A stretch of 64,000 nt of DNA from assembly GCF_003428645.1 (NCBI RefSeq), contig NZ_QVQH01000007.1, forward strand, positions 62,001-126,000, given 5' to 3'. Both the position numbers and the translations under genes were made by a program. The notes under the pieces were generated by a model. It saw only the letters and a program-made list of their open reading frames with translations, made no database searches and was not told the DNA's origin. Below, in pieces: positions 7,467 to 33,192 of this stretch. Every line of letters begins with the position of its first letter. Within the stretch, counting starts at the first letter, position 1. Source of the stretch: Geodermatophilus marinus (GTDB lineage: Bacteria > Actinomycetota > Actinomycetes > Mycobacteriales > Geodermatophilaceae).

Positions 7467-8411
7467 TCAACCGCGCGGCGCGGGCGCCGGCGCCGCCGGT
7501 GCGCGCCGCCGGACCGGGGCGACCACGAGGGCCACGCCGACGGTGGTCACGGCGATGCCGGCCAGGGACACCGGCGAGAGCCGCTCGCCGAACAGCAGCC
7601 AGGCCTCCAGGGCCGTCGCCGGTGGCACCAGGTAGTAGAGGCTGGAGACTCCGGCGGCCGTGCCGCGGCGCAGCAGGTACAGCAGCAGGAGCACCGCGCC
7701 GAGCGAGAGGACGACGACCAGCCAGGCGAACGCGGCGACGAACTCGGCCGTCCAGCGGATGGTGGTGTCCTCGGTGGCGACGGCGAGCACGAGCAGCAGG
7801 GTCGCCGCGGCGGTGTACTGCACCGCGGTGCCCCACACCAGCGGGACGGCGTCCCCGTGCCGCTTCTGGTACAGCGTGCCGGCGGTGCCCGCGGCGAGGC
7901 CGACGACGCAGGCCAGCAGGCCGGCCACCGGCAGCGGCCCGGTCGCGGCGTCGGCGCCGAGCACGCCCGGCCCGACCGTGAGCGCGACGCCGGCGACGCC
8001 GAGCACCAGGCCGGCCCACTGCCGGGCGGTGGCCCGCTCGCCGAGCAGCGGCGCGGCGAGGACGGCGACCAGCACCGGCTGGAGGCTGACCACGACCGCC
8101 GACACGCCGGCCGGGACGCCCACGGAGATGGCGTAGAAGACCCCGCCCAGGTAGCCCGCGTGCAGCAGGAGGCCGGCGACGGAGGCGTGCCGGAGCTGGG
8201 TGCGCGAGGCCGGCCGGGCCGAGCGCAGGGCCAGCGCCAGCCCGGCGAGCAGCACGGCCGCCAGCGCCAGCCGCACGCCGAGGAAGGTGAACGGCTCGGC
8301 GTAGGGCAGGCCGTACTTGGCACCGACGAACCCGGTGCTCCACAGCAGGACGAACAGCGCCGGACCGCCGAGGCGGACCGCGGGGGAACCCGGGCCGGGG
8401 GGCGAGGTCAC
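7467..8411 (-). CDS. EamA/DMT-family transporter
   Basis: 314 aa with ten predicted membrane segments arranged as two five-helix EamA repeats. Typical repeat signatures are ALFVLLWSTGFVGAKYGLP in the first half and SLYYLVPPATALEAWLLFGERLS near the end of the second. DMT proteins export small metabolites. The GTG start overlaps the stop of the upstream fused oxygenase as GTGA, so it is the last gene of the ligase-oxygenase operon and may export an intermediate or take up the substrate; direction is not decidable from sequence. Confidence 0.82.
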   Translation of the reverse strand: MTSPPGPGSPAVRLGGPALFVLLWSTGFVGAKYGLPYAEPFTFLGVRLALAAVLLAGLALALRSARPASRTQLRHASVAGLLLHAGYLGGVFYAISVGVPAGVSAVVVSLQPVLVAVLAAPLLGERATARQWAGLVLGVAGVALTVGPGVLGADAATGPLPVAGLLACVVGLAAGTAGTLYQKRHGDAVPLVWGTAVQYTAAATLLLVLAVATEDTTIRWTAEFVAAFAWLVVVLSLGAVLLLLYLLRRGTAAGVSSLYYLVPPATALEAWLLFGERLSPVSLAGIAVTTVGVALVVAPVRRRAPAAPAPAPRG

Positions 8412-10762
8412 GGGCGCCAGCGTGCATGCCGCGTCCCGGTCGTGCCGCTCCGGATCAGCTCCAGCCGCGGCCGCGGGCCGTCGCTGCGGCCGGTCTGCGG
8501 GGGCCGGCTGCCGGCCCGGAACGGGGCCGGCCACGTGACGCCCGGCCCGGCGTACCCCTGCTCGGCGGCCGCGTGCAGGGTCCACTGGGGGTCGTAGAGG
8601 TGCGGGCGGCCCAGGGCGCAGAGGTCCGCGCGGCCGGCGAGCAGGACGGAGTTGACGTCGTCCCAGCTGGAGATGGCGCCCACCGCGATGACCGCGACGC
8701 CGAGCTCCCGGCCCACCTCGTTGCGGATCCGGTCGGCGTACGGCGTCTGGTAGCTGCGCCCGAACGCCGGCCGCTCGCCCTTGACCACCTGGCCGGTGGA
8801 GACGTCGATGCCGTCGGCGCCGTGCTCGGCGAACGCCCGGGCGACCCGCACCGCGTCGTCGACGTCGGTGCCGCCCTCGAACCAGTCGGTGGCCGAGATG
8901 CGCACCGTCATCGGTCGGTCGGCCGGCCAGGCCGCGCGGACGGCGTCGAAGACCTCCAGCGGGTAGCGCAGCCGGTTCGGCAGCGGCCCGCCGTAGCGGT
9001 CGGTGCGGTGGTTGGCCAGCGGGGAGATGAAGGAGGACAGCAGGTAGCCGTGCGCGCAGTGCAGCTCGAGGACGTCGAAGCCGGCCCGCGCCGCGGCGTG
9101 CGTGCTGTCGACGAACTGCTGGAGGATCGCGGCCAGGTCGTCCTCGGTGAGCTCCCGGGGGACGGCGTTGGCGGGGGAGTAGGGCACCGCGGAGGGGCCG
9201 ACGACGTCCCAGCCGCCCTCGGGCAGCGGCTCGTCGATGCCCTCCCACATGAGCTTGGTAGAGCCCTTGCGGCCGGAGTGGCCGAGCTGCACGCCGATCC
9301 GCGCGTCGGAGGCCGCGTGCACGAAGTCGACCACCCGCGCCCAGACCGCCTCCTGCTCGGGCGCGTAGAGGCCGGTGCAGCCGGGGGTGATCCGGCCCTC
9401 GGGGGAGACGCAGACCATCTCGGTCATCACCAGCCCGGCGCCGCCGAGCGCCTTGCTGCCCAGGTGCACCAGGTGGAAGTCGGTGGGCAGGCCGTCGGCG
9501 GCGGAGTACATGTCCATCGCCGAGACCACGACCCGGTTCTTCAGCTCCAGCCCGCCGAGGCGGAAGGGGTGGAACATCGGCGGCCGGGGCTCGGCCGGTT
9601 CCGGCTGGCTGCGGGCGAACCAGGCGTCGACGGCGGCCACGAACTCCGGGTCGCGCAGCCGCAGGTTGTCGTGGGTGACCCGCCGGCTGCGGGTGATGAT
9701 GTTGAACGCGAACTGCTCGGGGTCCTGGTGCACGTAGCGGCCGATCTCCTCGAACCACTCGAGGCTGGCCTGGGCGGCGCGCTGGGTGGAGAGCACGACC
9801 GGCCGGCGCTCCTCCTCGTAGGCGGCCAGCGCGGTGGGCACGTCGGGCTGCTCGTGCAGGCAGGCGGCCAGGGCGAGGGCGTCCTCCATCGCCAGCTTCG
9901 TGCCCGACCCGATGGAGAAGTGCGCGGTGTGCGCCGCGTCGCCGAGCAGCACCAGGTTGCCGTGCCGCCAGGTCTCGTTGCGCAGGGTGAGGAAGTTCAG
10001 CCACTTGGAGTTGTTGGCGAACAGCCGGTGCCCGTCGAGGACGCCGGCGAACAGCTGCTCGACCAGCGCGATCGACTTGGTGTCGCTCTCGCCGGGCGGC
10101 AGGTCGAGGGCGGCGACGTCGGCGAAGGCGCGCTGCCAGACGTCCTCGTGCATCTCCACGATGAAGGTGCTGCCGGTGCGGTCGTAGGGGTAGCCGTGGA
10201 TCTGCATGACGCCGTACGGCGTCTCCTCCACGTAGAACTTGAAGGCCTCGAAGACCAGGTCGGTGCCCAGCCACATGTAGCGGCAGTTGCGGGTCTCCAA
10301 CGTGGGCCGGAACACCTCGGCGTAGCGGGTGCGCACCGCCGACCGGGCGCCGTCGCCGGCCACCACCAGGTCGTGGTCCGCGCGGAGCCGCTCGACGTCG
10401 GGCGCCTCGGTGCGGAAGCGCAGCGCGACCCCGAGGTCGGCGCAGCGGCGCTGCAGGATGCCGAGCAGCTCCTTGCGGCTCATGGCGGCGAAGCCGTGCC
10501 CGCCGGAGGTGGTGACCCGGCCGCGGTGGTGCACGTCGATGTCGTCCCAGCGGGCGAAGTGCCGCTCCATCTCCCGGTAGACCGCCGGGTCGGCGTGCTC
10601 GATGCCGCCGAGCGTCTCGTCGGAGAACACGACGCCGAAGCCGAAGGTGTCGTCGGGGGCGTTGCGCTCCCACACGGTGACCTCGTGCGCGGCGTCGAGC
10701 TGCTTGACCAGCGCGGCGAGGTAGAGCCCGCCGGGCCCGCCGCCGACGACCGCGATCCGCAT
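8408..10762 (-). CDS. fused aryl-CoA monooxygenase / OYE-type reductase (2-aminobenzoyl-CoA or salicylyl-CoA type)
   Basis: 784 aa in two domains. Residues 1 to ~390 form a class A flavin monooxygenase: dinucleotide motif VVGGGPGGLYLA, FGFGVVFSDETL, and the ribityl motif LLGDAAHTAHFSIGSG. Residues ~395-784 are an Old Yellow Enzyme barrel: FHPFRLGGLELKNRVV, VQLGHSGRKGS, HCAHGYLLSSFISPLANHRTDRYGG, and the C-terminal phosphate-binding GRADLCALGRPHLYDP. This fusion is known from 2-aminobenzoyl-CoA monooxygenase/reductase of Azoarcus evansii, which hydroxylates and then reduces the ring without cleaving it. Databases also call it salicylyl-CoA 5-hydroxylase/oxidoreductase. The adjacent aryl-CoA ligase, Rid protein and BadI-like hydrolase favour the aminobenzoate reading. 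Both domains look intact. Confidence 0.85.
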   Translation of the reverse strand: MRIAVVGGGPGGLYLAALVKQLDAAHEVTVWERNAPDDTFGFGVVFSDETLGGIEHADPAVYREMERHFARWDDIDVHHRGRVTTSGGHGFAAMSRKELLGILQRRCADLGVALRFRTEAPDVERLRADHDLVVAGDGARSAVRTRYAEVFRPTLETRNCRYMWLGTDLVFEAFKFYVEETPYGVMQIHGYPYDRTGSTFIVEMHEDVWQRAFADVAALDLPPGESDTKSIALVEQLFAGVLDGHRLFANNSKWLNFLTLRNETWRHGNLVLLGDAAHTAHFSIGSGTKLAMEDALALAACLHEQPDVPTALAAYEEERRPVVLSTQRAAQASLEWFEEIGRYVHQDPEQFAFNIITRSRRVTHDNLRLRDPEFVAAVDAWFARSQPEPAEPRPPMFHPFRLGGLELKNRVVVSAMDMYSAADGLPTDFHLVHLGSKALGGAGLVMTEMVCVSPEGRITPGCTGLYAPEQEAVWARVVDFVHAASDARIGVQLGHSGRKGSTKLMWEGIDEPLPEGGWDVVGPSAVPYSPANAVPRELTEDDLAAILQQFVDSTHAAARAGFDVLELHCAHGYLLSSFISPLANHRTDRYGGPLPNRLRYPLEVFDAVRAAWPADRPMTVRISATDWFEGGTDVDDAVRVARAFAEHGADGIDVSTGQVVKGERPAFGRSYQTPYADRIRNEVGRELGVAVIAVGAISSWDDVNSVLLAGRADLCALGRPHLYDPQWTLHAAAEQGYAGPGVTWPAPFRAGSRPPQTGRSDGPRPRLELIRSGTTGTRHARWRP

Positions 10763-10782
10763 GCCGCCCCCTCCTACGCCGC

Positions 10783-12396
10783 TCACCGGAGCCGGAACCG
10801 CTGCAGCTTGCCGGTGGCCGTGCGCGGCAGCTCGGTGCGGAACTCGACGGCCCGCGGGCACTTGTACGGGGCGATCACCCGCTTGCAGTGGGCCTGCAGC
10901 TCCTCGGGCGGCACCTCGCCGGTGTGCTCCGGGTCGAGGACGACGAAGGCCTTGACGATCGTGCCGCGGTCGGGGTCCGGGGCGCCGACCACGGCGCACT
11001 CCACCACGGCGGGGTGTTGCAGCAGCGCCTGCTCGACCTCGGGGCCGGCGATGTTGTACCCGGCCGAGACGATCATGTCGTCGGTGCGCGCCCGGTAGGT
11101 GAAGTAGCCGTCGGTGTCGCGGACGTAGGTGTCGCCGGTGTGGTTCCAGCCGTGCCGGACGTAGGACTCCTGCCGGTCGCCGAAGAGGTAGCGGCAGCCG
11201 GTGGGCCCCCGCACGGCGAGGTGACCCTCGGTGCCGTCGGGCACCGGCTCGCCGTCGTCGTCCAGCACCGCGGCGGTGTAGCCGGGGACGGCGCGGCCGG
11301 TGCAGCCGGGCCGGATGTCGTCGTCGGCCGCGGAGACGAAGATGTGCAGCATCTCGGTGGCCCCGATGCCGTCGATCACCCGCAGGCCGGTGGCGTCGTG
11401 CACGGCGTGCCAGGTGGCCGCCGGCAGGTTCTCGCCGGCCGAGACCGCCCGGCGCAGCCCGGCCAGCCGGTCGGCCTTCCCGCCGGCGACGACCGCCTTG
11501 TACGCCGTCGGCGCGGTGAACAGCACCGTGACGCCGTGGTCGGCGATCGCGTCGGCGAGCTGATCGGGGGTGGCGCGCTCGAGCAGCAGCACGCTGGCCC
11601 CGACGCGCAGCGGGAAGACGACCAGCCCGCCGAGGCCGTAGGTGAACGCCAGGGGCGGGGTGCCGGTGAACACGTCCTCGGGCTCGGGGCGCAGCACGTG
11701 GGCGCCGAAGGTGTCGGCGATGGCCAGCACGTCGCGGTGGAAGTGCATGGTCGCCTTCGGCTTGCCGGTGGTGCCGGAGGTGAAGGCCAGCAGCGCGACG
11801 TCGTCGGCGGCGGTGTCCGCCGGGGCGGGCGGCGCGTCCCGCCGGGCCGCGGCGCGGGCGGTGAGGTCGCCGGGGCCGTCGCCGCCGAACGGGGCGACCA
11901 CCATGCCCGGTACGGCCGCCCGCTCGAGGTCCTCGGTCAGCCGGGCGTCGCACAGGGCGAGGGCCGGCCGGCACATCTCCCCGATCGTGGCCAGCTCCCC
12001 GGCGCGCAGGGCCGGCATCGTGGTCACCACGACCCCGCCGGCGCGCAGGACCGCGAACCAGCAGGCCACCAGCCAGGGCTCGTTGAACCCGCGCAGCAGG
12101 ACGCGGTTGCCCGGCACCAGGCCGAGCTCGTCGACGAGGACCGCGGCGATCCGGTCGGCCCGGTCGCGCAGCTCGCCGTAGCTCCAGGTGCCGCCGCCCG
12201 GGGTGCGCAGGCACGGCCGGTCGGCGCCGAGCCGGTCGATCGTGGCGTCGAGCAGCGCGACGGCGCAGTTGAGCCGCTCGGGGTAGCCCAGGTCGCCGAG
12301 GTCGAGGACCGGCCAGGTCTCCGGCGGGGGCAGGTTGTCCCGGCAGAAGGTGTCGACGTGCGCCGAGGGCGCGAGGGTCGGGGCGTGCACCGTCAT
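10783..12396 (-). CDS. aryl-CoA ligase (2-aminobenzoate/benzoate-CoA ligase family)
   Basis: 537 aa acyl-adenylate-forming enzyme. P-loop FTSGTTGKPKATMHFH, A5-like DGIGATEMLHIF, hinge/A8 region YRARTDDMIVSAGYNIAGPEVE, and catalytic lysine near the end in PRTATGKLQRFRLR. The segment RQESYVRHGWNHTGDTY is characteristic, from memory, of 2-aminobenzoate-CoA ligases. It would activate the aromatic acid with ATP and CoA for the fused oxygenase encoded 20 bases downstream. The ATG at 12396 has GGGAGG seven bases upstream. A promoter with TTGACT and CATACT lies ~50 bases ahead, overlapped by candidate operator C. Confidence 0.85.
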   Translation of the reverse strand: MTVHAPTLAPSAHVDTFCRDNLPPPETWPVLDLGDLGYPERLNCAVALLDATIDRLGADRPCLRTPGGGTWSYGELRDRADRIAAVLVDELGLVPGNRVLLRGFNEPWLVACWFAVLRAGGVVVTTMPALRAGELATIGEMCRPALALCDARLTEDLERAAVPGMVVAPFGGDGPGDLTARAAARRDAPPAPADTAADDVALLAFTSGTTGKPKATMHFHRDVLAIADTFGAHVLRPEPEDVFTGTPPLAFTYGLGGLVVFPLRVGASVLLLERATPDQLADAIADHGVTVLFTAPTAYKAVVAGGKADRLAGLRRAVSAGENLPAATWHAVHDATGLRVIDGIGATEMLHIFVSAADDDIRPGCTGRAVPGYTAAVLDDDGEPVPDGTEGHLAVRGPTGCRYLFGDRQESYVRHGWNHTGDTYVRDTDGYFTYRARTDDMIVSAGYNIAGPEVEQALLQHPAVVECAVVGAPDPDRGTIVKAFVVLDPEHTGEVPPEELQAHCKRVIAPYKCPRAVEFRTELPRTATGKLQRFRLR

Positions 12397-12446
12397 GTCG
12401 GGGCCTCCCAGGGGCGGCGGGGTGATCCGGACCACACCGTGCGACC

Positions 12447-12474
12447 AGTATGGCGCTCGGGTGACGGGAGTCAA
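12447..12474 (-). promoter_or_regulatory. promoter of the ligase-oxygenase-EamA operon
   Basis: Minus-strand TTGACT (12474-12469), 16-base spacer, CATACT (12452-12447). The predicted transcript starts ~45 bases before the ligase ATG. Operator C overlaps the -35. Confidence 0.55.
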
Positions 12475-12476
12475 CA
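12461..12476. promoter_or_regulatory. candidate operator C
   Basis: On the minus strand TGTTGACTCCCGTCAC contains the inverted repeat TGAC-N4-GTCA. Thirteen of 16 positions match site D at 14850-14865 in front of the SDR-Rid operon. It lies between the divergent ligase operon and the second PaaX gene. Confidence 0.5.
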
Positions 12477-12502
12477 CCGCGGCATGACAGCAGGCGGGCG
12501 GC

Positions 12503-12508
12503 TATCCT
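12503..12508 (+). promoter_or_regulatory. -10 box of a leaderless PaaX2 transcript
   Basis: TATCCT ends six bases before the GTG at 12515, so transcription should start at or beside the start codon. There is no Shine-Dalgarno sequence, consistent with leaderless initiation. Confidence 0.5.
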
Positions 12509-12514
12509 GTCGCC

Positions 12515-13351
12515 GTGACCGCCGTCGAGCAGGCGACCTCGCCGGCCGGGGCGGGGTTGCAGCCGCGCCAGCTGATCGTGACGCTCTACGGGCTCTACGC
12601 CCGCGAGCGCGGCGGCTGGCTCTCGGTGGCCGCGGTGGTCCGGCTGATGGCCGACCTCGGGGTGGACGAGCCCGCCGTCCGCTCGTCGGTGTCCCGGCTC
12701 AAGCGGCGGGGGTGGCTGGCGGCCCGGCGGGAGGCCGACGTGGCCGGCTACGCCCTGACCGACCCGGCCCGCGAGGTGCTGGCCGACGGCGACGCGCGGA
12801 TCTTCGCCCGGCGGCGCGCGGAGCCCTCCGACGGCTGGCTGCTCGTGGTGTTCTCGGTCCCGGAGTCCGAGCGCGAGCGGCGGCACCGGCTGCGCGCGGA
12901 GCTGACCCGGCTGGGGTTCGGCACCGTCGCGCCGGGGGTGTGGATCGCTCCCGGCCACCTGGCCGAGGAGGCCGCCGAGGTGCTGCGCCGGCGTGGCCTG
13001 GCCGGGTACGTGGAGCTGTTCACCCGCGCCTGCGTGCCCGGGGGGTCGGTGCGCGCCTCCGTCGCGCGCTGGTGGGACCTCGACGCGCTGCACGACCGGT
13101 ACGCCGGTTTCCTCGACCGGCACGCCGGCGCCGACGCCGGGAGCGGGTGGCCCGACCCCGCGCGGGCGTTCCCCGACTACGTCCGGCTGCTCACCGACTG
13201 GCGGGCCCTGCCCTACGCCGACCCCGGGCTGCCGCTGGACCTGCTGCCGGCCGACTGGAACGGCGCGCGGGCGGCGGACCTGTTCGCGCGGCTGCGCGAG
13301 CGCCTCGCCGGCCCGGCCGCCGAGCACGCCCGGGCGCTGATCGAGGGCTGA
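12515..13351 (+). CDS. PaaX-family transcriptional regulator 2
   Basis: 278 aa, same three-part PaaX layout as the regulator at 6007 but clearly divergent in sequence. Winged helix RQLIVTLYGLYARERGGWLSV and EPAVRSSVSRLKRRGWL; middle domain LLVVFSVPESERERRHRLRAELTRLGFG; C-terminal WDLDALHDRYAGFL, LLTDWRALPYADPGLPLDLLPADWNG. It probably represses the divergently transcribed ligase-oxygenase operon, and perhaps the SDR-Rid and BadI-like genes, until an aryl-CoA accumulates. Ligand identity is inference. Confidence 0.85.
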   Translation: MTAVEQATSPAGAGLQPRQLIVTLYGLYARERGGWLSVAAVVRLMADLGVDEPAVRSSVSRLKRRGWLAARREADVAGYALTDPAREVLADGDARIFARRRAEPSDGWLLVVFSVPESERERRHRLRAELTRLGFGTVAPGVWIAPGHLAEEAAEVLRRRGLAGYVELFTRACVPGGSVRASVARWWDLDALHDRYAGFLDRHAGADAGSGWPDPARAFPDYVRLLTDWRALPYADPGLPLDLLPADWNGARAADLFARLRERLAGPAAEHARALIEG

Positions 13352-13468
13352 ACGACCCGCCGGACGCCGCCCCGGGCCCGACCCGGTGCCGAGCACGCCC
13401 CGGCGGACGCGCCACCCACCGGGTCCGCCGCGGGTCCTGCGTCTCGCCGGGGTCCTACATCTCGCCGG

Positions 13469-13514
13469 GGGTCCTACGTCTGTGAGTGCAACTGCACTCA
13501 CAGACGTAGGACCC
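13469..13514. terminator. 22-bp perfect palindrome (family copy 1)
   Basis: Arms 13469-13490 and 13493-13514 are exact reverse complements around a two-base AC centre; the core is GTCCTACGTC and TGAGTGCA. It sits between convergent genes (PaaX2 and Rid), so a bidirectional terminator is likely. Two degenerate copies of the motif GTCCTACATCTCGCC precede it directly. Related palindromes occur at 15696, 30313 and 35374. Confidence 0.6.
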
Positions 13515-13560
13515 GCGGTGGCGACCTGGGTCGGTGGGCGCGGTCGAGCCGCCGGGGAGT

Positions 13561-13680
13561 ATGCCGCGGTCGGGCCGGGGGTGCCGTGGTCGGGCCGGGG
13601 GTGCCGTGGTCGGGCCGGGGGTGCCGTGGTCGGGCCGGGGGTGTCGCGGTCAGGCCGGGGGTGTCGCGGTCAGGCCGGGA
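13561..13680. repeat. six tandem 20-bp units at the 3' end of the Rid gene
   Basis: Units begin at 13561, 13581, 13601, 13621, 13641 and 13661, each a variant of GTGCCGTGGTCGGGCCGGGG; the last two are GTGTCGCGGTCAGGCCGGGG-like. The final unit contains the Rid stop codon, so the repeat appears to have grown by duplication of the gene end. With the palindrome this accounts for the whole 318-base intergenic stretch; no gene is seen in it. Confidence 0.75.
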
Positions 13681-14071
13681 GGACGGCGGTGCCCTGCACC
13701 TCGACGAGCGCCTCGTCGTCCCAGAGCCGGGCCACCCCGATCCCGGCCATCGCCGGGTAGGCCTGGCCCACCAGCCGGCGCCACACGGCACCGATCTCAC
13801 GGGCGTGCGCCCGGTAGTCGGCGAGGTCGACGGCGTAGACGGTGAGCGCGGCCAGGTGCCCGGGCTCCCCGCCCGCGGCCCGCAGCGCGGTGAGCAGGTT
13901 GCCCAGCGCCCGCTCGAACTGCGCGACCACGCCGTCGCCGACGATGCGCCCCTCCGCGTCCAGGGCGGTCTGGCCGGCGAGGAACACCAGGCGGCCGGCC
14001 CCGGCGACCACGGCGTGCGCGAAGCCCGACGGCCGGGCGAGCTCGGGCGGGTCGACCCGTTCCAGGCTCAC
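13670..14071 (-). CDS. RidA/YjgF/YER057c/UK114-family protein
   Basis: 133 aa with the Rid chorismate-mutase-like fold: GRLVFLAGQTALDAEGRIVG, then QFERALGNLLTALRAAGGEPGHLAALTVYAVDL, then YPAMAGIGVARLWDDEALVEVQGTAV. Canonical RidA deaminases have PARS with an essential arginine where this protein has PAMA, so classical imine deamination is uncertain; several Rid subfamilies share this loss. Its GTG overlaps the SDR stop as GTGA, making a two-gene operon. In the proposed aminobenzoate route it could assist loss of the ring amino group, but that is a guess given the missing arginine. Confidence 0.8.
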   Translation of the reverse strand: MSLERVDPPELARPSGFAHAVVAGAGRLVFLAGQTALDAEGRIVGDGVVAQFERALGNLLTALRAAGGEPGHLAALTVYAVDLADYRAHAREIGAVWRRLVGQAYPAMAGIGVARLWDDEALVEVQGTAVLPA

Positions 14072-14826
14072 GACTGCACCGCCCCTCCGTCGACGTTGAT
14101 GCCCTGCCCGGTCACCGCCGCGTTCGCCACGCACAGCAGCACGACGTCGGCCACCTCCTCGGGCGTGACCAGCCGGCCGATCGGCTGCTTGCGGGCCAGC
14201 GCGTCGCGCGCCTGCTCCGGGGTGCGGCCGGTGGTGGCGCTGATGCCGGCCACCGTGCGGTCGGTCATCGGGGTGTCCACGTAGCCGGGGCAGACCGCGT
14301 TCACGGTCACCCCCCGGCCGGCCACCTCCGCGGCGGCCGAGCGCACCAGGCCCAGCAGGCCGTGCTTGCTCGCGGTGTAGGCGGCCACGTAGGGGTCCCC
14401 GCGCCTGGCCGCCACGGACGCGACCGCGACCACCCGCCCCCAGCCGGCCTCGGCCATGCCGGGCAGCACCCGGCGCAGCAGCCGGAACGGTGCGGTGAGG
14501 TTCACCTCCAGCATGCGGGCCCAGTCCTCGTCGGTGGTGCGGGCCAGCGGCGCGGACACGGCGACGCCGGCGTTGAGCACGAGCACCTCGACCGGGCCGC
14601 CCCACTCCCGCTCGACCCGGCCGGCGGCGGCGTCCGCAGCACCCGGGTTGGTGAGGTCGGCGGGGACGACGAGCGACGGGCCCGGCAGCTGCGCGGCCAC
14701 CGCCTCGAGCTCCGCCGCCGTGCGGGCGACCAGCGCGACCGCGTGGCCCTCGGCGGAGAGCCGGCGGGCGACCGCGGCGCCGATGCCGCGCCCCGCCCCC
14801 GTGACCAGGCAGCGGCGGGCGGGCAC
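14068..14826 (-). CDS. short-chain dehydrogenase/reductase
   Basis: 252 aa classical SDR. Nucleotide motif TGAGRGIG near residue 9, LVLNAGVA, catalytic Ser in VAVASVAARRG, catalytic YTASK, and PGYVDTPM after it. The C-terminus GQGINVDGGAVQS is the usual beta-hydroxyacyl-CoA/oxoacyl type. A role in oxidising or reducing the alicyclic CoA intermediate is plausible from context. GTG start at 14826; the upstream interval holds candidate operator D and the divergent BadI-like gene. Confidence 0.82.
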   Translation of the reverse strand: MPARRCLVTGAGRGIGAAVARRLSAEGHAVALVARTAAELEAVAAQLPGPSLVVPADLTNPGAADAAAGRVEREWGGPVEVLVLNAGVAVSAPLARTTDEDWARMLEVNLTAPFRLLRRVLPGMAEAGWGRVVAVASVAARRGDPYVAAYTASKHGLLGLVRSAAAEVAGRGVTVNAVCPGYVDTPMTDRTVAGISATTGRTPEQARDALARKQPIGRLVTPEEVADVVLLCVANAAVTGQGINVDGGAVQS

Positions 14827-14849
14827 GGCGGCGAGCTTGCCAGCCCCTC

Positions 14850-14865
14850 GTGACGACCGTCAACA
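14850..14865. promoter_or_regulatory. candidate operator D
   Basis: Minus strand TGTTGACGGTCGTCAC, with TGAC-N4-GTCA inverted repeat, matching operator C at 13 of 16 positions. It contains a TTGACG that can serve as the -35 of the SDR-Rid operon and lies 31 bases before the BadI-like start. Confidence 0.5.
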
Positions 14866-14896
14866 TGACGACATACCGCCGACAGAGGGGGCGACC

Positions 14897-15694
14897 GTGC
14901 GGCCCGAGGAGTTCACCGACGTTCACTACGAGGTGGAGGAGGACAACCACGCCGTCATCACCATCGACCGCCCGGAGCGGATGAACAGCTTCCGCGGCCG
15001 GACGGTGGACGAGCTGATCTCCGCCTTCAAGCACGCCTGGGCCGACCGCCGGGTCGCCGCCGTCGTCCTCACCGCGGCCGGCGAGCGCGCCTTCTGCACC
15101 GGGGGCGACGTCAAGGAGCGCGCCGAGACCGGCGGCTACGGCGAGACCGAGTGGGGGACGTTCGAGATCGAGCGGCTGCACCGGATCATCCGCGACATCC
15201 CCAAGCCCGTGATCGCCGCGGTCAACGGCATCGCGATCGGCGGCGGCCACGTGCTGCACGTGCTCTGCGACCTCACCGTGGCCTGCGAGGAGGCCACCTT
15301 CGCGCAGTCCGGGCCGCGGGTCGGCAGCTTCGACGCCGGCTTCGGCACCGCCTACCTCGCCCGCGTGGTGGGCGAGAAGCGGGCCCGCCAGATCTGGTTC
15401 CTCCTCGACCGCTACGACGCCGCCACCGCCGAGCGGTGGGGGCTGGTCAACGAGGTCGTCCCGCGCGAGCAGCTGCTCGAGACCGCCCGCGGGTACGCCC
15501 GGAAGATCGGCTCGTACTCGCCGACGGCCATCCGCTTCCTCAAGCACTCGTTCAACGCCGACAGCGACCACCTCGGCGGCATCTCGCACCTGGCGTTCGA
15601 CGGCCTGGAGCAGTTCGTCCACAGCGAGGAGGGCATGGAGGGCGCCCGGGCCTTCGCCGAGAAGCGGCCGCCGGACTTCCGCCGGTTCCGCTGA
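14897..15694 (+). CDS. BadI/MenB-like crotonase-fold enzyme, probable 2-ketocyclohexanecarboxyl-CoA hydrolase
   Basis: 265 aa. Motifs in order: DRPERMNSFRGRTVDELI, RAFCTGGDVKE, IRDIPKPVIAAVNGIAIGGG, LCDLTVACE, SGPRVGSFDAGFGTAYLARV and VGEKRARQIW, SPTAIRFLKHSFN, and EKRPPDFRRF. These match both BadI (hydrolytic ring cleavage of 2-oxocyclohexanecarboxyl-CoA) and MenB (the reverse-type Dieckmann chemistry in menaquinone synthesis). No men genes are in view, while aryl-CoA catabolic genes surround it, so ring cleavage is preferred. GTG start at 14897 follows a G-rich SD. It diverges from the SDR-Rid operon and shares operator D's interval. Confidence 0.75.
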   Translation: MRPEEFTDVHYEVEEDNHAVITIDRPERMNSFRGRTVDELISAFKHAWADRRVAAVVLTAAGERAFCTGGDVKERAETGGYGETEWGTFEIERLHRIIRDIPKPVIAAVNGIAIGGGHVLHVLCDLTVACEEATFAQSGPRVGSFDAGFGTAYLARVVGEKRARQIWFLLDRYDAATAERWGLVNEVVPREQLLETARGYARKIGSYSPTAIRFLKHSFNADSDHLGGISHLAFDGLEQFVHSEEGMEGARAFAEKRPPDFRRFR

Positions 15695-15695
15695 C

Positions 15696-15737
15696 GTCCT
15701 ACACCCGCCCTTGACCGCTGCGACGGGCGTGTAGGAC
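15696..15737. terminator. imperfect palindrome after the BadI-like gene (family copy 2)
   Basis: GTCCTACAC (15696-15704) pairs with GTGTAGGAC (15729-15737), with further partial pairing of the Cys-rich-coding-like inner GC blocks. It begins two bases after the BadI-like stop, as expected for a terminator. It shares the GTCCTAC ends with the perfect palindromes elsewhere. Confidence 0.5.
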
Positions 15738-15776: not shown

Positions 15777-17573
15777 ATGGGCGTGCAGACGTTCGCTGCT
15801 CCGCGGATCGAGGCCGAGCGGCCCGGCGACGGCCGGTTGCTGCTCCGCTCGGCCGAGCCGCTGGGCGACCACCCGGTCGGCGTCGTGCACTCCTTTCGGG
15901 CCGGCAGCGAGGCCCACCCCGACCGGCTGCTGGTCGCCGAGCGGGGTGCCGACGGGGAGTGGGCCCGCTCGACGTGGGGCGAGGTGCGCGCGCGGGCCGA
16001 CCGGCTGGCGCAGGGCCTGCTCGACCGGGGGCTGGCCGACCGGCCGGTGCTGGTGCTGTCGGGCAACAGCCGGCTGCACCTGACCGTGGCGCTGGCCGCG
16101 ATGACCGTCGGCGCCCCCGTCGTCCCGACCAGCGTCGCGTACTCGCTGCAGAGCGCCGACCACGCCAAGCTCCGCGCGATGGCCGACCTGGTCGACCCCG
16201 GCCTGGTCGTGGCCGAGGACGCCTCGTTCGCGCGGGCGGTCGAGGCCGTCACCGCGGGCCGGGCGGGGGCGCGGGAGGTGCTCGGGCCGCTGGGCACCGA
16301 CCCGGCGGAGTTCGGCGCCGACCCCACCCCCGAGGTGGACCGCCGCTGCGGGGCGCTGGCCCGGGACGACGTCGCCAAGATCCTCTTCACCTCCGGGTCG
16401 ACGGGCTCCCCCAAGGGCGTGCTCACCACCCACGGGATGCTCAGCGCCAACCAGCAGCAGCTGCGCCAGGTCTGGCCCTTCCTCGCCGAGGAGCCGCCGG
16501 TCCTGCTCGACTGGCTGCCCTGGAGCCACACCTTCGGCGGCAGCCACGACCTGAACCTGGTGCTCACCCACGGCGGCACGCTGTGGATCGATGACGGCCG
16601 CCCGGCCCCCGCGCTGGTGGACCGGACGGTGCGCAACCTCGCCGACGCGCGCCCCACCCTCTTCTTCAACGTGCCCGCCGGGTACGCCGCGCTGCTGCCG
16701 CACCTCGAGCGCGACCGAGCCGCGGCGGCGGCCTTCCTCGACCGGCTGCGTTTTGCCTTCTTCGCCGCCGCGGCCCTGCCCCAGCAGCTGTGGGACCGGA
16801 TGGCCGCGCTGGCCGCCGCGCACGGCGCGGACATGGTCATGACCACCTCGTGGGGGCTGACCGAGACCGCACCGGCGGCGACGAGCGCCCACTACCGGAT
16901 CACCCGCAGCGACGTGCTCGGGGTCCCGCTGCCCGGCGTCGAGCTCGCGCTGGTGCCGGTGGGCGCCAAGACTGAGGTCCGGGTGAAGGGCCCCAACGTC
17001 ACACCCGGCTACCACCGCCGGCCCGACCTCACCGCCGCCGCCTTCGACGAGCACGGCTTCTTCCGCACCGGGGACGCCGTCGCCCTGGCCGACGACGACG
17101 ACCCGGCCGCCGGGCTGGTGTTCCGGGGCCGTACCGCCGAGGACTTCAAGCTGATGACCGGCACCTTCGTCAGCGTCGGCACGCTGCGCCCGGCCCTGCT
17201 CTCGGCGGCGCAGGGCCTGCTCGCCGACGCCGTGATCTGCGGGCAGGACGGCCCGTGCGTGACCGCCCTCGCCTGGCCCGCGCCCGACGCCGCGGCCCGG
17301 GTCTCCGCCGAGGGGGTGCCGGACGACGCGCTGCGCGCCGAGCTGGCGGCCGCCCTGGCGCGGCTGGCGGCCGGGAGCAGCGGGTCCTCCCAGCACGTCG
17401 AGCGGTTGCTGCTGCTCACCGAGCCGGCCCAGCTCGACGCCGGGGAGATCACCGACAAGGGCTACGTCAACCAGGCCGCCGTCCGGGAGCGCCGCGCCGG
17501 CCTCGTCGCGCTGCTCGCCACCGAGCCGCCGCCCCCGCAGGTGGTCCTCCGGCCGCAGGGGCAGGGTGCCTGA
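15777..17573 (+). CDS. feruloyl-CoA synthase-like acyl-CoA ligase
   Basis: 598 aa adenylate-forming enzyme. P-loop FTSGSTGSPKGVLTTHGM at ~205, LLDWLPWSHTFGGSHDLN, SWGLTETAPAAT, and a C-terminal core GRTAEDFKLMTGTFVSVG in place of the usual TGR-D-IK-GG hinge. That substitution and the length of ~600 aa are features of the feruloyl-CoA synthase family, which activates hydroxycinnamates before side-chain removal to vanillin-type aldehydes. No feruloyl-CoA hydratase-lyase gene is adjacent. ATG at 15777 has only a weak SD. The next gene overlaps by eight bases. Confidence 0.75.
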   Translation: MGVQTFAAPRIEAERPGDGRLLLRSAEPLGDHPVGVVHSFRAGSEAHPDRLLVAERGADGEWARSTWGEVRARADRLAQGLLDRGLADRPVLVLSGNSRLHLTVALAAMTVGAPVVPTSVAYSLQSADHAKLRAMADLVDPGLVVAEDASFARAVEAVTAGRAGAREVLGPLGTDPAEFGADPTPEVDRRCGALARDDVAKILFTSGSTGSPKGVLTTHGMLSANQQQLRQVWPFLAEEPPVLLDWLPWSHTFGGSHDLNLVLTHGGTLWIDDGRPAPALVDRTVRNLADARPTLFFNVPAGYAALLPHLERDRAAAAAFLDRLRFAFFAAAALPQQLWDRMAALAAAHGADMVMTTSWGLTETAPAATSAHYRITRSDVLGVPLPGVELALVPVGAKTEVRVKGPNVTPGYHRRPDLTAAAFDEHGFFRTGDAVALADDDDPAAGLVFRGRTAEDFKLMTGTFVSVGTLRPALLSAAQGLLADAVICGQDGPCVTALAWPAPDAAARVSAEGVPDDALRAELAAALARLAAGSSGSSQHVERLLLLTEPAQLDAGEITDKGYVNQAAVRERRAGLVALLATEPPPPQVVLRPQGQGA

Positions 17574-18435
17574 CGTGCTCGACGGCCACCTCCTCGTGGA
17601 CGCGCACGTGCACGTCCCGCTGCTCTCCTCGTTGGCGCCGGCCTGGCTGGACTGGGCCCGCCGGTTCGGCCGGCCCGGCATCCTGGAGGAGGCCTGGCGG
17701 CCCGACGGCACGCCGGACCCCGCCGCGCTGGACCGGCTGTTCGCCGCCGAGGGGGTCGACGTCGCCCTGCTGTTCTGCGAGTACAGCCCCAAGGCCACCG
17801 GCTACCAGCTCTTCGACGACCTGCTGCCGGTCGTCGAGCACAACCCGCGCCGCTTCCGGCCGGTGGCCAACGTCAACCCGCACCTGCACTTCCCGATCGC
17901 CCGCGAGCTGACCCGCCAGCTCGACGCCGGGGCGGCCGCGCTGAAGATCCACCCGGTGCACGGCGGTTTCCGCGCCGACGACGCCGCCCTGTACCCCGCC
18001 TACGCCGTCCTGGTGGAGCGGGGGGTGCCGCTGGTGGTGCACTGCGGCACCAGCAGCTTCCCCGGCTCCACCAACGCCCTCGCCGACCCGCAGACCCTCG
18101 ACGCCGTCCTCCGCGACTTCCCCGACCTGCAGGTCGTGCTCGCCCACGGGGGCCGAGGCTGGTGGTACGACGCGGCGGCGTTCCTCGCCGTGTCCCGCCC
18201 CAACGTCTGGATCGAGCTCTCCGGCCTGCCCCCCAAGCGGCTGCCCGAGTACTACGCCCGCTTCGACCTCGGCCGGCTGGCCCGCCGGTGGATCTACGGC
18301 ACCGACTGGCCCGGCGTCCCGGGGCAGGCGGCCAACGCCCGCGCCGTGGCCTCGCTCGGGCTGCCCGAGGACGTCGTCGGCCTCGTGCTCGGGGGCAACG
18401 CGGTGCGGGTCTACGCCGGCCTCGACCCCGGCTAG
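17566..18435 (+). CDS. metal-dependent amidohydrolase (amidohydrolase-2 family)
   Basis: 289 aa. HxH metal motif DAHVH (His14, His16), then AALKIHPVHGGF, PLVVHCGTSSF, VLAHGGRGWWYDAA and YGTDWPGVPGQ, giving the metal ligands and final Asp of the TIM-barrel amidohydrolase family. Relatives include aromatic-acid decarboxylases and lactone hydrolases (LigI/LigJ types). Which reaction applies cannot be told; overlap with the feruloyl-CoA synthase-like gene suggests a shared pathway for lignin-derived aromatics. GTG 17566 is used; a second GTG at 17575 would also serve. Confidence 0.7.
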   Translation: MPDVLDGHLLVDAHVHVPLLSSLAPAWLDWARRFGRPGILEEAWRPDGTPDPAALDRLFAAEGVDVALLFCEYSPKATGYQLFDDLLPVVEHNPRRFRPVANVNPHLHFPIARELTRQLDAGAAALKIHPVHGGFRADDAALYPAYAVLVERGVPLVVHCGTSSFPGSTNALADPQTLDAVLRDFPDLQVVLAHGGRGWWYDAAAFLAVSRPNVWIELSGLPPKRLPEYYARFDLGRLARRWIYGTDWPGVPGQAANARAVASLGLPEDVVGLVLGGNAVRVYAGLDPG

Positions 18436-28827: not shown

Positions 28828-29022
<195 letters not shown>

Positions 29023-30783: not shown

Positions 30784-31560
30784 ATGCCCGTCCTGCCCGA
30801 GCTCGCCGCCGCCCTCGCCGGTGGCCGGATCGAGGTCGTCGACCTCACCGCGCCGCTGTCGTCGGGGACGCCGGTCATCGCGCTGCCGGAGCAGTTCGCC
30901 CAGACCGCCCGGTTCGAGCTGACCGAGCTCTCCCGCTACGACGACCGCGGGCCGGCCTGGTACTGGAACGACATCCGCACCGGCGAGCACACCGGGACCC
31001 ACCTCGACGCGCCGAACCACTGGGTGACCGGCCGGGACGGCGAGGACGTCGCGTCCATCGCCCCCGCCCGGCTGGTGGGGCCGGCCGCCGTCCTGGACCT
31101 CTCCGCCGAGGCCGCCGCCGACCCCGACTTCCTGCTCGAGGTCGACCACGTGCGCGCCTGGGAGGCCGAGCACGGCCCGCTCCCCGAGGGCGGCTGGCTG
31201 CTCTACCGCACCGGGTGGGACGCCCGCAGCGACTCCCAGGAGCGGTTCGTCAACGCCGACGAGAGCGGGCCGCACACCCCCGGGGTCTCGCCGGCGTGCG
31301 CCCGCTGGCTGGCCGAGGAGGCCCCGGTCGTCGGCCTGGGCGTCGAGACCGTCGGCACCGACGCCGGCGCCGCGGGCGGCTTCGACCCGCCCTTCCCGTG
31401 CCACGCCGCGCTCATGGGCAGCGGCAGGTACGGCCTCACCCAGCTGCGCAACCTGGCCCTGCTCCCGCCGACCGGCGCGGTGCTCGTCGCCGCCCCGCTG
31501 CCGATCGTCGGCGGGTCCGGGTCGCCGGCGCGGGTGCTGGCGCTCGTCGAGCGGGGCTGA
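30784..31560 (+). CDS. cyclase-family metal hydrolase (kynurenine formamidase-like)
   Basis: 258 aa. The metal-binding signature HTGTHLDAPNHW, preceded by WYWNDIRTGE, and the later HTPGVSPACARWLAEE and VGLGVETVGTD are typical of the cyclase/formamidase fold. Kynurenine formamidase (KynB) leads toward anthranilate, which would suit the aminobenzoate block, but the family also contains isatin hydrolase and others. Three bases separate it from the ThDP enzyme gene. ATG start with AAGGGA upstream. Confidence 0.72.
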   Translation: MPVLPELAAALAGGRIEVVDLTAPLSSGTPVIALPEQFAQTARFELTELSRYDDRGPAWYWNDIRTGEHTGTHLDAPNHWVTGRDGEDVASIAPARLVGPAAVLDLSAEAAADPDFLLEVDHVRAWEAEHGPLPEGGWLLYRTGWDARSDSQERFVNADESGPHTPGVSPACARWLAEEAPVVGLGVETVGTDAGAAGGFDPPFPCHAALMGSGRYGLTQLRNLALLPPTGAVLVAAPLPIVGGSGSPARVLALVERG

Positions 31561-31563: not shown

Positions 31564-33192
31564 GTGGCGACGGTCGCCGAGGCGGTCGGCGCCGCGCTGG
31601 TCCGGCACGGTGCGGACACCGTGTTCGGCGTGGTGGGCTCGGGCAACTTCGCCGTCACCAACGCCATGGTGGCCGCCGGGGCCCGGTTCGTCGCCGCGCG
31701 GCACGAGGGCGGCGCGGCCACGATGGCCGACGCCTACGCGCGGGCCAGCGGCACCCCGGGCGTGCTCAGCGTGCACCAGGGGTGCGGCCTGACCAACGCC
31801 CTCACCGGCATCACCGAGGCCGCCAAGAGCCGCACCCCGCTGGTCGTCCTGGCCGCCGAGGCGACCTCGCCGCTGTCCAACTTCGCCGTCGACCAGGCCG
31901 GCCTGGCGGCGGCGGTCGGCGCGGTGCCGCGGCGGGTCTCCTCGGCGGCGACGGCGCTGGAGGACGTCGCCGCGGCGGTCGCGACCGCGGTGGGCGAGCG
32001 CCGCACCGTGCTGCTCAACCTGCCCCTCGACGTGCAGGTGGACGACGTCCCGCACGGCGCCACCGACCCGGTGGTGCCGGCGCCGGCGCTGCCGGCCCCG
32101 GCCGCGGCCGACGTCGACCGGCTGGCCGCCGTGCTGCAGACCGCCGCCCGCCCGGTGTTCGTCGCCGGCCGCGGCGCCCGGCACGCCCGCGCGGCGCTCG
32201 AGGAGCTCGCCGACCGGTGCGGAGCCCTCCTCGCCACCTCGGCGGTCGCCCGCGGGTTGTTCGCCGGCAACCCGTGGTCGCTGGGCACCTCCGGCGGCTT
32301 CGCCTCGCCGCTGGCCGCCGAGCTGATCCGGGAGGCGGACCTGCTCGTCGCCTGGGGCTGCTCGCTGACCATGTGGACCACCCGGCACGGCCGGCTGGTC
32401 GGCCCGGGCACCCGGGTGGCGCAGGTGGACCTCGAGCCGGGGGCGATCGGCCGCAACCAGCCGGCGGACACCGGCGTGGTGGGCGACGTCCGGCGGACGG
32501 CAGAGGCGGTGGGCGCCGTCCTCGGGACGACGTGCCCCGGCTACCGCTCCCCGGAGCTCGCCGACCGCCTGGCCGCCGGGGTGCGCTGGCGCGACGTCCC
32601 CTTCACCCCGGCGGCGCACGCCGACCGGATCGACCCGCGCACCCTCACCACCGCCCTCGACGACCTGCTGCCCGAGCAGCGGCTGGTGGCGGTGGACTCC
32701 GGCAACTTCATGGGCTACCCCAGCGCCTTCCTCGACGTCCCCGACGCCGACGGGTCGGTGTTCACCCAGGCCTTCCAGTCGGTCGGCCTCGGCCTGGCCA
32801 CCGCCATCGGGGCCGCGCTGGCCCGGCCGGACCGGCTGACCGTGGCCGCCCTCGGCGACGGCGGTGCGCTCATGGGCGCCTCGGAGCTGGAGACCGTGGT
32901 GCGGCTCGGGCTGCCCCTGGTCGTGGTGGTCTACGACGACGCCGCCTACGGCGCCGAGGTGCACCACTTCGGGCCCGACGGGCACCCGCTCGACACGGTG
33001 CGCTTCCCGGACGCCGACCTCGCCGCCGTCGCCCGCGGGCACGGGTTCGAGGCGCACGTCGTGCGGGCCGAGCGCGACCTCGAGCCGGTGGCGCGCTGGC
33101 TGGCCGGCCCGCGGTCCCGGCCGCTGCTCCTCGACGCCAAGGTGGCCGCCGACGAGCCGTCGTGGTGGCTGGCCGAGGCCTTCGGCCACTGA
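31564..33192 (+). CDS. ThDP-dependent enzyme (acetolactate synthase/benzoylformate decarboxylase superfamily)
   Basis: 542 aa, three ThDP-fold domains. Catalytic Glu in VAARHEGGAATMADAYAR; central domain LAAVLQTAARPVFVAGRGARHARAALEEL. The cofactor motif is GDGGALMGASELE ending in VVYDDAAYG, where most family members have Asn instead of Asp-Asp. It lacks the MdlC histidines, so it is not a second benzoylformate decarboxylase. The upstream cyclase gene is translationally close, suggesting one pathway on a 2-oxo acid. GTG start. Confidence 0.72.
   Translation: MATVAEAVGAALVRHGADTVFGVVGSGNFAVTNAMVAAGARFVAARHEGGAATMADAYARASGTPGVLSVHQGCGLTNALTGITEAAKSRTPLVVLAAEATSPLSNFAVDQAGLAAAVGAVPRRVSSAATALEDVAAAVATAVGERRTVLLNLPLDVQVDDVPHGATDPVVPAPALPAPAAADVDRLAAVLQTAARPVFVAGRGARHARAALEELADRCGALLATSAVARGLFAGNPWSLGTSGGFASPLAAELIREADLLVAWGCSLTMWTTRHGRLVGPGTRVAQVDLEPGAIGRNQPADTGVVGDVRRTAEAVGAVLGTTCPGYRSPELADRLAAGVRWRDVPFTPAAHADRIDPRTLTTALDDLLPEQRLVAVDSGNFMGYPSAFLDVPDADGSVFTQAFQSVGLGLATAIGAALARPDRLTVAALGDGGALMGASELETVVRLGLPLVVVVYDDAAYGAEVHHFGPDGHPLDTVRFPDADLAAVARGHGFEAHVVRAERDLEPVARWLAGPRSRPLLLDAKVAADEPSWWLAEAFGH

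What the first reader, a model, noticed from the sequence alone, without database searches (positions are those of the whole stretch)
8408..15694. Candidate complete aerobic aryl-CoA pathway: ligase, fused monooxygenase-reductase, Rid, SDR, BadI-like ring hydrolase
Seen: ligase, fused FAD-monooxygenase/OYE enzyme, EamA exporter, PaaX regulator, Rid, SDR and BadI/MenB-like genes lie in one block of three adjacent transcription units. Known: the fusion makes 2-amino-5-oxocyclohex-1-enecarboxyl-CoA from 2-aminobenzoyl-CoA; BadI hydrolyses 2-oxocyclohexanecarboxyl-CoA to an open-chain CoA ester. Inference: after loss of the amino group the product is a 2-oxo acid CoA that the BadI-like enzyme can cut, so ring opening would need no dioxygenase. 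I do not know this route described as a whole in actinobacteria.
Basis: partly seen in the sequence, partly recalled or inferred. Interest (0 to 1): 0.75.

Follow-up and report, generated by a model that had tools for sequence, protein, structure and literature searches.

The report
Anthranilate breakdown with swapped ring-opener
A soil actinobacterium carries a gene set that most likely breaks down anthranilate through CoA esters, in which the usual later enzymes are replaced by a ring-opening enzyme borrowed from another pathway, so that the ring could be cut by water instead of by an oxygen-splitting dioxygenase.

Summary
The genes are real. The first half is a known pathway: anthranilate-CoA ligase plus fused monooxygenase/ene-reductase, studied in Azoarcus and, among actinobacteria, in Arthrobacter Rue61a. 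New here is the lower half. In 92 non-duplicate loci (chosen for closeness to the window) the core is followed by one of three sets that did not mix under my rules: A thioesterase/cupin/FAH hydrolase (39), B acyl-CoA dehydrogenase and/or PRK08258 crotonase, often with SDR (27), C SDR+BadI-like (12, window included); 14 have none in reach. BadI copies at least 77% like the window's occur in 18 of 112 family genomes, all 18 with the fusion. In a 39-row tree the fusion-linked BadI copies form one clade. A 13-base element shared by the ligase/PaaX and SDR/BadI gaps ties BadI to the ligase and recurs at equivalent promoters in 14 of 27 set-B loci. Isatin hydrolase and a TPP enzyme 15 kb away suggest anthranilate as substrate. 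Against a simple reading: BadI is below the badI cut-off and lacks a tyrosine present in the annotated BadI and MenB proteins compared; Rid lacks the arginine essential for RidA. No enzyme activity, nor any step after ring opening, is shown.

The parts
8408..10762 (-). Fused 2-aminobenzoyl-CoA monooxygenase (residues ~1-390) / OYE-type reductase (~394-750), 784 aa
   Evidence: NF006101 1245.7 bits over cut-off 1078; Pfam FAD_binding_3 + Oxidored_FMN; 68% identical to the Arthrobacter pAL1 enzyme
10783..12396 (-). Aryl-CoA ligase, most likely anthranilate-CoA ligase, 537 aa
   Evidence: Best solved-structure hit anthranilate-CoA ligase 4wv3, E 6e-83; 57% identical to the ligase gene next to the pAL1 fusion, the gene tested in PMC3534580 by my reading of the gene order; benzoate-CoA ligase family TIGR02262 341 bits, cut-off 375 not reached
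12462..12474 (.). Predicted operator TGACGGGAGTCAA between ligase and PaaX
   Evidence: One of only two TNACGNNNGTCAA sites in 64 kb, expected 0.11 (pattern made from these sites); conserved in relatives
12515..13351 (+). PaaX-family regulator, candidate repressor of the cluster, 278 aa
   Evidence: Pfam PaaX, PaaX_M, PaaX_C; TIGR02277 160 bits, below cut-off 264.55
13670..14071 (-). Rid-family protein without the RidA arginine (Met108 in its place), 133 aa
   Evidence: Pfam Ribonuc_L-PSP; Rid gene in 77 of 92 non-duplicate fusion loci; none in the 11 monooxygenase-only stretches fetched; Met in 77 of 82 rows at the Arg105 column
14068..14826 (-). SDR dehydrogenase, overlaps the Rid gene by 4 bases (14068-14071), 252 aa
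   Evidence: Pfam adh_short; same protein group in 12 of 12 set-C, 12 of 27 set-B, 1 of 39 set-A loci
14851..14863 (.). Predicted operator TGACGACCGTCAA between SDR and BadI-like gene
   Evidence: Second of two sites in the window; conserved in relatives
14897..15694 (+). BadI-like crotonase, candidate ring hydrolase, 265 aa
   Evidence: TIGR03210 286.8 bits, best of 23 badI hits in the genome but below cut-off; one clade with other fusion-linked BadI, 100/96 support
30784..31560 (+). Isatin hydrolase (would feed anthranilate), 15 kb away
   Evidence: 73% identical to the cyclase-family protein close to the fusion in G034 (L038), whose best solved-structure hit is isatin hydrolase 5nmp, E 2e-82
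31564..33192 (+). TPP enzyme, candidate isatinate decarboxylase
   Evidence: 56% identical to the TPP enzyme near the fusion in L114, a group found in 16 of 92 fusion loci; decarboxylase role inferred, no solved isatinate decarboxylase among its hits
7467..8411 (-). EamA-family exporter, accessory
   Evidence: Pfam EamA; beside the fusion in 2 of 12 non-duplicate set-C loci
15777..18435 (+). PRK12582-type ligase (15777-17573) and amidohydrolase (17575-18435) after BadI, membership unsure
   Evidence: the ligase recurs after BadI in L150 (=L061) and L162; the amidohydrolase also sits with a monooxygenase-only gene in L171

Best explanation
An aerobic anthranilate pathway through CoA esters with a swapped lower half. 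The ligase makes 2-aminobenzoyl-CoA; [quoted passage not shown] The enamine is hydrolysed, with or without help of the dedicated Rid protein, to 2,5-dioxocyclohexanecarboxyl-CoA, a beta-keto thioester. The BadI-like crotonase then cuts the ring between C1 and C2 by a reverse Dieckmann reaction, giving 4-oxopimeloyl-CoA; the SDR reduces the second ketone before or after the cut. PaaX represses the ligase-fusion and Rid-SDR/BadI units through a shared operator. Shown: genes, linkage, clade, shared element. Inferred: every reaction, its order, and repression by PaaX.
For: Fusion over the NF006101 cut-off; ligase nearest to anthranilate-CoA ligase among solved structures; isatin hydrolase and TPP enzyme in the window and near the fusion in 20 and 16 of 92 loci. 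BadI: 18 of 18 family genomes with BadI >=77% have the fusion, 26 of 112 overall; 10 of 10 with BadI >=72% in the order sample of 397, 61 overall; 17 fusion-linked rows form one clade 100/96 in a 39-row tree. Sets A, B, C did not mix in 92 non-duplicate loci, as expected if they act on the same intermediate. Operator: two in 64 kb, in the ligase/PaaX and SDR/BadI gaps; 4 in 5.2 Mb for a narrower form, two of them here; in set B 20 of 22 sites are intergenic and all 20 flank LIG, sdr, FUS or acad, in 14 of 27 loci (p 3e-16); the 8 of 12 set-C loci with a PaaX gene have it at both promoters, the 4 without PaaX have none. The genome has a separate true MenB, and its best matches to the set-B crotonase are 36-37%. 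Precedents: C7H8O4-CoA in Arthrobacter on anthranilate; EchA20, a MenB/BadI-like hydrolase, in aerobic steroid breakdown.
Against: BadI is below the badI cut-off and has Val241 where the 3 badI-annotated and 4 MenB proteins compared have Tyr; all 32 rows of its wider clade lack it. Rid lacks the arginine on which RidA activity depends. BadI homologues of 58-70% are mostly without the fusion: 0 of 5 genomes in the family sample and 6 of 26 in the order sample have it, one of the 6 about 25 kb away and five far off or on another contig. In 3 of 18 genomes BadI and fusion are on different contigs (one, G022, fits a contig break). Operator counts in the window alone are weak in the fair test, and 13 of 27 set-B loci have no intergenic site. 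In G250 (L145, not among the 12 set-C loci) no ligase or Rid and only a weak SDR match was found near. Downstream enzymes are not identified.
Confidence: 0.57

Rival explanations
1. The ligase-fusion unit degrades anthranilate, but BadI (with or without the SDR) serves an alicyclic acid (cyclohexanecarboxylate-type) route that merely lies next to it.
For: BadI homologues of 67-70% in other actinobacteria sit with dehydrogenase, SDR or ligase homologues and no fusion in the fetched stretch (L151-L155, L158, L159); a proteobacterial badI sits with aliA/aliB.
Against: The BadI copies linked to the fusion form their own clade and share the operator with the ligase promoter; the SDR falls in one protein group with that of set-B loci without BadI. 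No close relative of the set-B dehydrogenase lies in the window.
Confidence: 0.2
2. The block degrades salicylate or another 2-substituted benzoate through the CoA ester (salicylyl-CoA 5-hydroxylase type), as the database name of the fusion suggests.
For: NCBI names the fusion family bifunctional salicylyl-CoA 5-hydroxylase/oxidoreductase.
Against: Rue61a, with this enzyme family, grows on anthranilate and not on salicylate; monooxygenase-only homologues (one in this genome, L045) are a separate group with no Rid in the 11 stretches fetched; isatin-to-anthranilate genes accompany the fusion in some loci.
Confidence: 0.12
3. BadI acts in the pathway but not as the ring hydrolase, for example as a hydratase or isomerase, and the ring is opened by another enzyme.
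For: Missing tyrosine present in annotated BadI and MenB; set-B loci use a different crotonase (PRK08258) and/or an acyl-CoA dehydrogenase in its place.
Against: Ser144 and Asp146 are shared by all 39 rows and Gly139 by 38 of 39 (their catalytic role is recalled from MenB); the clade groups with BadI rather than MenB.
Confidence: 0.11

Closest known systems
Aerobic 2-aminobenzoyl-CoA pathway of Azoarcus evansii (Schuhle 2001; recalled, and as described in the review PMC4539516, passages)
   Same: Ligase and fused monooxygenase/reductase, then 'beta-oxidation'; a Rid protein ('translation inhibitor') and the proposal of non-oxygenolytic later steps are recalled. A gene set of this kind is seen in Paracoccus denitrificans PD1222.
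   Different: Paracoccus has SDR, crotonase, acyl-CoA dehydrogenase, thioesterase and hydroxyacyl-CoA dehydrogenase genes around the fusion; here SDR plus BadI.
Anthranilate CoA route of Arthrobacter sp. Rue61a, plasmid pAL1 (PMC3534580, passages; map)
   Same: Actinobacterium; ligase 57%, fusion 68%, Rid 53% identical; PaaX regulators on both sides.
   Different: Lower genes are thioesterase, cupin and FAH-family hydrolase; no SDR or BadI in the stretch shown.
BadI, 2-ketocyclohexanecarboxyl-CoA hydrolase
   Same: 52-53% identity to three badI-annotated proteobacterial proteins; SDR partner next door; groups on the BadI side of the tree.
   Different: Below the curated cut-off; lacks the tyrosine; keeps a Lys-x-Arg as in MenB (Lys/Arg-x-Arg) that those BadI proteins lack; aerobic context.
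EchA20/IpdF of steroid catabolism (PMC5380842, passages)
   Same: Aerobic, actinobacterial, MenB/BadI-like crotonase opens a ring of a CoA ester hydrolytically.
   Different: Steroid rings; by that paper EchA20 is only 28% identical to MenB and 24% to BadI.

Membership tests
2-aminobenzoyl-CoA monooxygenase/reductase | One chain with FAD monooxygenase and OYE-type reductase, over the curated family score | tested here: met
   1245.7 bits, cut-off 1078; both Pfam domains
[quoted passage not shown]
   Needs enzyme assay
Anthranilate-CoA ligase | Closest solved relative is an anthranilate-CoA ligase | tested here: met
   4wv3 ranks first, E 6.4e-83; benzoate-CoA ligase 4rlf next, 4.3e-79: a narrow lead
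Anthranilate-CoA ligase | Activity on anthranilate | not testable with these tools
   Shown only for the Rue61a enzymes (PMC3534580, passages)
BadI | Score over the TIGR03210 cut-off | tested here: not met
   286.8 bits, cut-off 467.6
BadI | Groups with BadI, apart from MenB | tested here: met
   Branch of 35 rows holding the three annotated BadI and the window, 100/100; 4 MenB rows apart (midpoint root, one very long MenB row)
BadI | Tyrosine present in annotated BadI and MenB near the C-terminus | tested here: not met
   Val241; Tyr in 3 of 3 badI-annotated and 4 of 4 MenB proteins
BadI | Hydrolyses an alicyclic beta-keto thioester | not testable with these tools
   Needs enzyme assay
MenB | Score over the TIGR01929 cut-off | tested here: not met
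   303.9 bits, cut-off 342.7; another gene on contig C70 scores 417.9
RidA | Arginine at position 105 | tested here: not met
   Met108; Met in 77 of 82 rows, Leu, Thr or Val in 5, Arg in none
RidA | Conserved glutamate (Glu120 of TdcF) | tested here: inconclusive
   Glu124 invariant in 82 of 82 rows; taken as the equivalent by position, without an alignment to TdcF
Rid4 to Rid7 (arginine-free Rid groups) | Membership in one of these subfamilies | not tested
   No subfamily models were at hand; only the missing arginine is shared
Salicylyl-CoA 5-hydroxylase (SdgC type, recalled) | Monooxygenase without reductase domain | tested here: not met
   OYE domain at 396-732

The most novel reading that the evidence does not exclude
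A BadI-like hydrolase was recruited once from an alicyclic-acid pathway and has since moved between several lineages of the anthranilate-CoA core, giving an aerobic aromatic route whose ring is opened by water. The Rid protein of this core defines an arginine-free Rid group with a real substrate: a cyclic enamine whose carboxyl is a thioester, so that the arginine that binds the free carboxylate in RidA has nothing to bind and was lost.
Probability: 0.37. Interest if true: 0.7.

Novelty: new variant of a known kind. Interest (0 to 1): 0.5.

Why it matters
The fate of 2-amino-5-oxocyclohexenecarboxyl-CoA is given only as 'beta-oxidation' in the review passages seen. Three alternative gene sets behind one core give concrete, separately testable answers, and BadI makes one of them chemically explicit. 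Arginine-free Rid groups are called mysterious in print (PMC4433059), and this core gives one kind of them a predicted substrate. A predicted operator links the genes and would help annotation. The first half of the protein is widespread: 546 stretches in a capped scan encode relatives (only the best 80 were read, the reductase half of the rest was not checked).

Tried and rejected
MenB duplicate: rejected, because a true MenB is elsewhere and the tree separates them. EamA, the branched-chain-type ABC transporter (1109-5826), the second PaaX (6007-6852), DUF6158 (6855-7403) and the amidohydrolase as core parts: not kept. The transporter block is near the fusion in the genus, in Blastococcus (L061) and in L149, but also beside a monooxygenase-only gene in G026 (L171), as is the amidohydrolase. 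Pfam gave only a broad family for the amidohydrolase and its one solved relative is uncharacterised. Tyrosine loss as a mark of the fusion-linked clade: rejected, its wider clade lacks it too. Fair test of the operator: a pattern from the ligase promoter alone with one mismatch gives 2 hits in the window, both here, expected 0.61, and 11 of 100 shuffles reach 2, so the window count by itself is weak; the weight is on set B. Set A has only 6 sites in 840 kb although 32 of its 39 loci have a PaaX. Rid control: I fetched 11 of the 14 monooxygenase-only hits listed (not G002, G020, G029); the G006 stretch (L174) was cut so that the neighbouring fusion cluster, whose Rid is about 9 kb from the monooxygenase-only gene (L033), stays outside, so 0 of 11 holds for the fetched stretches. 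Structure prediction was not used. Gene calling in the relatives was my own GC-based script, so small genes may be missed; families were single-linkage groups at 42% identity over 70% length. The fusion tree is a FastTree run with warnings on long branches.
Full report
WHAT IS THERE. The window is from a 5.2-Mb genome of 71 contigs; close named relatives are Geodermatophilus telluris, G. sabuli and Blastococcus. All genes of the finding exist as intact reading frames with typical codon-position GC: EamA 7467-8411, fusion 8408-10762, ligase 10783-12396 (all minus), PaaX 12515-13351 (plus), Rid 13670-14071 and SDR 14068-14826 (minus), BadI-like 14897-15694 (plus). After BadI come a PRK12582-type ligase and an amidohydrolase; beyond EamA lie DUF6158, a second PaaX and a branched-chain-type ABC transporter.

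UPPER HALF: ANTHRANILATE. The fusion exceeds the curated score of NF006101 and has both domains. That family carries a salicylyl-CoA name, but other evidence points to anthranilate. (i) The best solved-structure hit of the ligase is an anthranilate-CoA ligase, narrowly ahead of benzoate-CoA ligases. (ii) Arthrobacter Rue61a pAL1 carries Rid, ligase and fusion 53, 57 and 68% identical to those of the window; in PMC3534580 (passages) two Rue61a ligases were expressed and act on anthranilate, the strain grows on anthranilate and not on salicylate, and a CoA ester of C7H8O4 was seen only in anthranilate-grown cells. (iii) A cyclase-family gene lies near the fusion in 20 and a TPP-enzyme gene in 16 of 92 non-duplicate loci; the cyclase protein of L038 matches solved isatin hydrolase at E 2e-82, and the window holds both genes at 30784-33192, 73% and 56% identical to those of L038 and L114. 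Isatin hydrolysis and decarboxylation would yield anthranilate; isatin, isatinic acid and anthranilic acid were detected in Variovorax on indoleacetate (PMC9613470, passages). (iv) Eleven stretches around monooxygenase-only homologues, one in this genome, show no Rid, against Rid in 77 of 92 fusion loci. These are 11 of the 14 such hits listed, and the G006 stretch was cut short of a neighbouring fusion cluster that has a Rid about 9 kb away.

LOWER HALF: THREE ALTERNATIVE SETS. Three are duplicates, leaving 92. Beyond a core of Rid, PaaX, ligase and fusion (not all in every locus), they carry set A, TesB-like thioesterase, cupin and FAH hydrolase (39); set B, acyl-CoA dehydrogenase and/or PRK08258 crotonase, with SDR in 12 of 27 (27); or set C, SDR and BadI (12); 14 have none within reach, some cut by contig ends, and one of these (L031, G022) has its BadI on another contig. 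No locus scored as more than one set under rules that require at least two of the three A genes, one of the two B genes, or BadI; two non-duplicate set-C loci also have an FAH-family gene some genes away, and one set-A locus an SDR. Set A is the pAL1 type; set B resembles Paracoccus denitrificans, and by recall Azoarcus evansii. The 80 named loci were chosen by similarity to the window's fusion, so the proportions are not a census. G086 has set B (L146), while three genomes of its genus (G083, G085, G087) have BadI.

BADI BELONGS TO THE BLOCK. In the family sample of 112 genomes, 23 have a BadI hit at E 1e-90: 18 at 77% identity or more, all with the fusion, and 5 at 58-70%, none with it; 26 genomes have the fusion. 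Fifteen of the 18 have both within 10 kb; the other three (G022, G098, G099) have them on different contigs, and in G022 the second contig begins with Rid-SDR-BadI (L162), as a contig break would give. In the order sample of 397 genomes, 36 have a BadI hit at E 1e-80: 10 at 72% or more, all with the fusion, and 26 at 58-70%, of which 6 have the fusion (one, G161, about 25 kb away; five far off or on another contig); 61 genomes have the fusion. Fisher values for the upper groups are 6e-15 and 4e-9; the identity lines were drawn after seeing the data, relatedness is not corrected for, and the two samples overlap. The BadI tree (39 rows) puts all 17 fusion-linked rows (16 different; G161 counted in, on a long branch) in one clade (100/96), sister to 8 copies without the fusion nearby, most of which lie beside dehydrogenase, SDR or ligase homologues (L151-L155, L158, L159; L143). 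On the fusion tree, with the rows of no set left out and L031 put to C, the set-C label needs 5 changes, or 4 without the long-branched L145 (the first count with 'none' rows in was 6). One BadI clade on scattered fusion branches suggests that BadI, or the whole set, moved between lineages, or was lost repeatedly; a fast tree cannot decide.

SHARED OPERATOR. Aligned divergent promoters showed TNACGNNNGTCAA in both the ligase/PaaX and the SDR/BadI gaps. The window holds two such sites, at 12462-12474 and 14851-14863, expected 0.11; the pattern was made from these sites, so this count is not independent. A pattern from the ligase promoter alone, one mismatch allowed, is weaker (2 hits, expected 0.61, 11 of 100 shuffles as many). 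The independent test is set B, not used to make the pattern: 22 sites, 20 of them intergenic where 13% of the sequence is intergenic (p 3e-16), and all 20 flank ligase, SDR, fusion or dehydrogenase genes; they fall in 14 of 27 loci, 13 have none. In set C, 17 of 17 sites are in the two promoters (two of them one palindrome read on both strands); the 8 loci with PaaX have both, the 4 without PaaX have none. Set A has 6 sites in 840 kb. In the whole genome a narrower form occurs 4 times, two of them here, while the reversed control occurs 7 times.

HOW IT LIKELY WORKS. [quoted passage not shown] Loss of ammonia gives 2,5-dioxocyclohexanecarboxyl-CoA, whose acid is C7H8O4, the formula seen in Rue61a. 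This is a beta-keto thioester like the substrate of BadI. Cutting C1-C2 with water gives 4-oxopimeloyl-CoA; the SDR may reduce the other ketone before or after. These reactions and their order are inferred. An aerobic precedent for a MenB/BadI-like hydrolase exists: EchA20 (PMC5380842, passages).

WHAT SPEAKS AGAINST. BadI scores below the badI and menB cut-offs. At the MenB Tyr258 position (number recalled) it has Val241; the 3 badI-annotated and 4 MenB proteins have Tyr, the 32 rows of its wider clade do not. Rid has Met108 where RidA has Arg105; Met in 77 of 82 rows, never Arg. PMC4433059, PMC5619798 and PMC8113886 (passages) hold this arginine decisive for deaminase activity, and the first calls the arginine-free groups mysterious. 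My reading, an inference, is that the arginine binds the substrate's carboxylate, which here is a thioester. Whether this Rid belongs to one of the named arginine-free groups was not tested. The steps after ring opening are not identified, so 'complete pathway' is not shown.

NOVELTY. The upper route is known in proteobacteria and in an actinobacterium. I found no report of the BadI variant in the searches, which cover open-licence PubMed Central papers only and of which I saw listings and, for a few papers, passages; Schuhle 2001 and the pAL1 paper were not held. I rate it a new variant of a known kind.

Noticed in passing
window 22752-24353, 26704-30262: Further aromatic catabolism genes: benzoylformate decarboxylase (over its NCBIfam cut-off), a VanA-like Rieske oxygenase and protocatechuate 4,5-dioxygenase subunits.
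   Followed up: partly
window 30446-30524: ARAGORN reports a tRNA-Cys with the unusual anticodon aca on the minus strand inside a likely coding frame (30404-30703); probably a false hit.
   Followed up: no
window 13460-13520 and 15692-15740: Hairpins around the words CCTACGTCTGTGAGTGCA and CCTACAC, after PaaX and after BadI, and a short tandem repeat at about 13575-13680, read by eye; possible terminators or a repeat family.
   Followed up: no
L171, L174, L045: Monooxygenase-only homologues (46-49% identical to the fusion's first half) with PaaX and ligase homologues, in L171 and L174 also an FAH-family gene; candidate salicylyl-CoA loci. In L171 the same ABC transporter/PaaX/DUF6158 block as in the window lies beside it.
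   Followed up: partly
L064-L069, L071, L072, L080: Amycolatopsis loci hold Rid and fusion but no ligase of this family in reach; the ligase may lie elsewhere.
   Followed up: no
window 37012-38301: Two-domain glyoxalase/HPPD-like protein.
   Followed up: no
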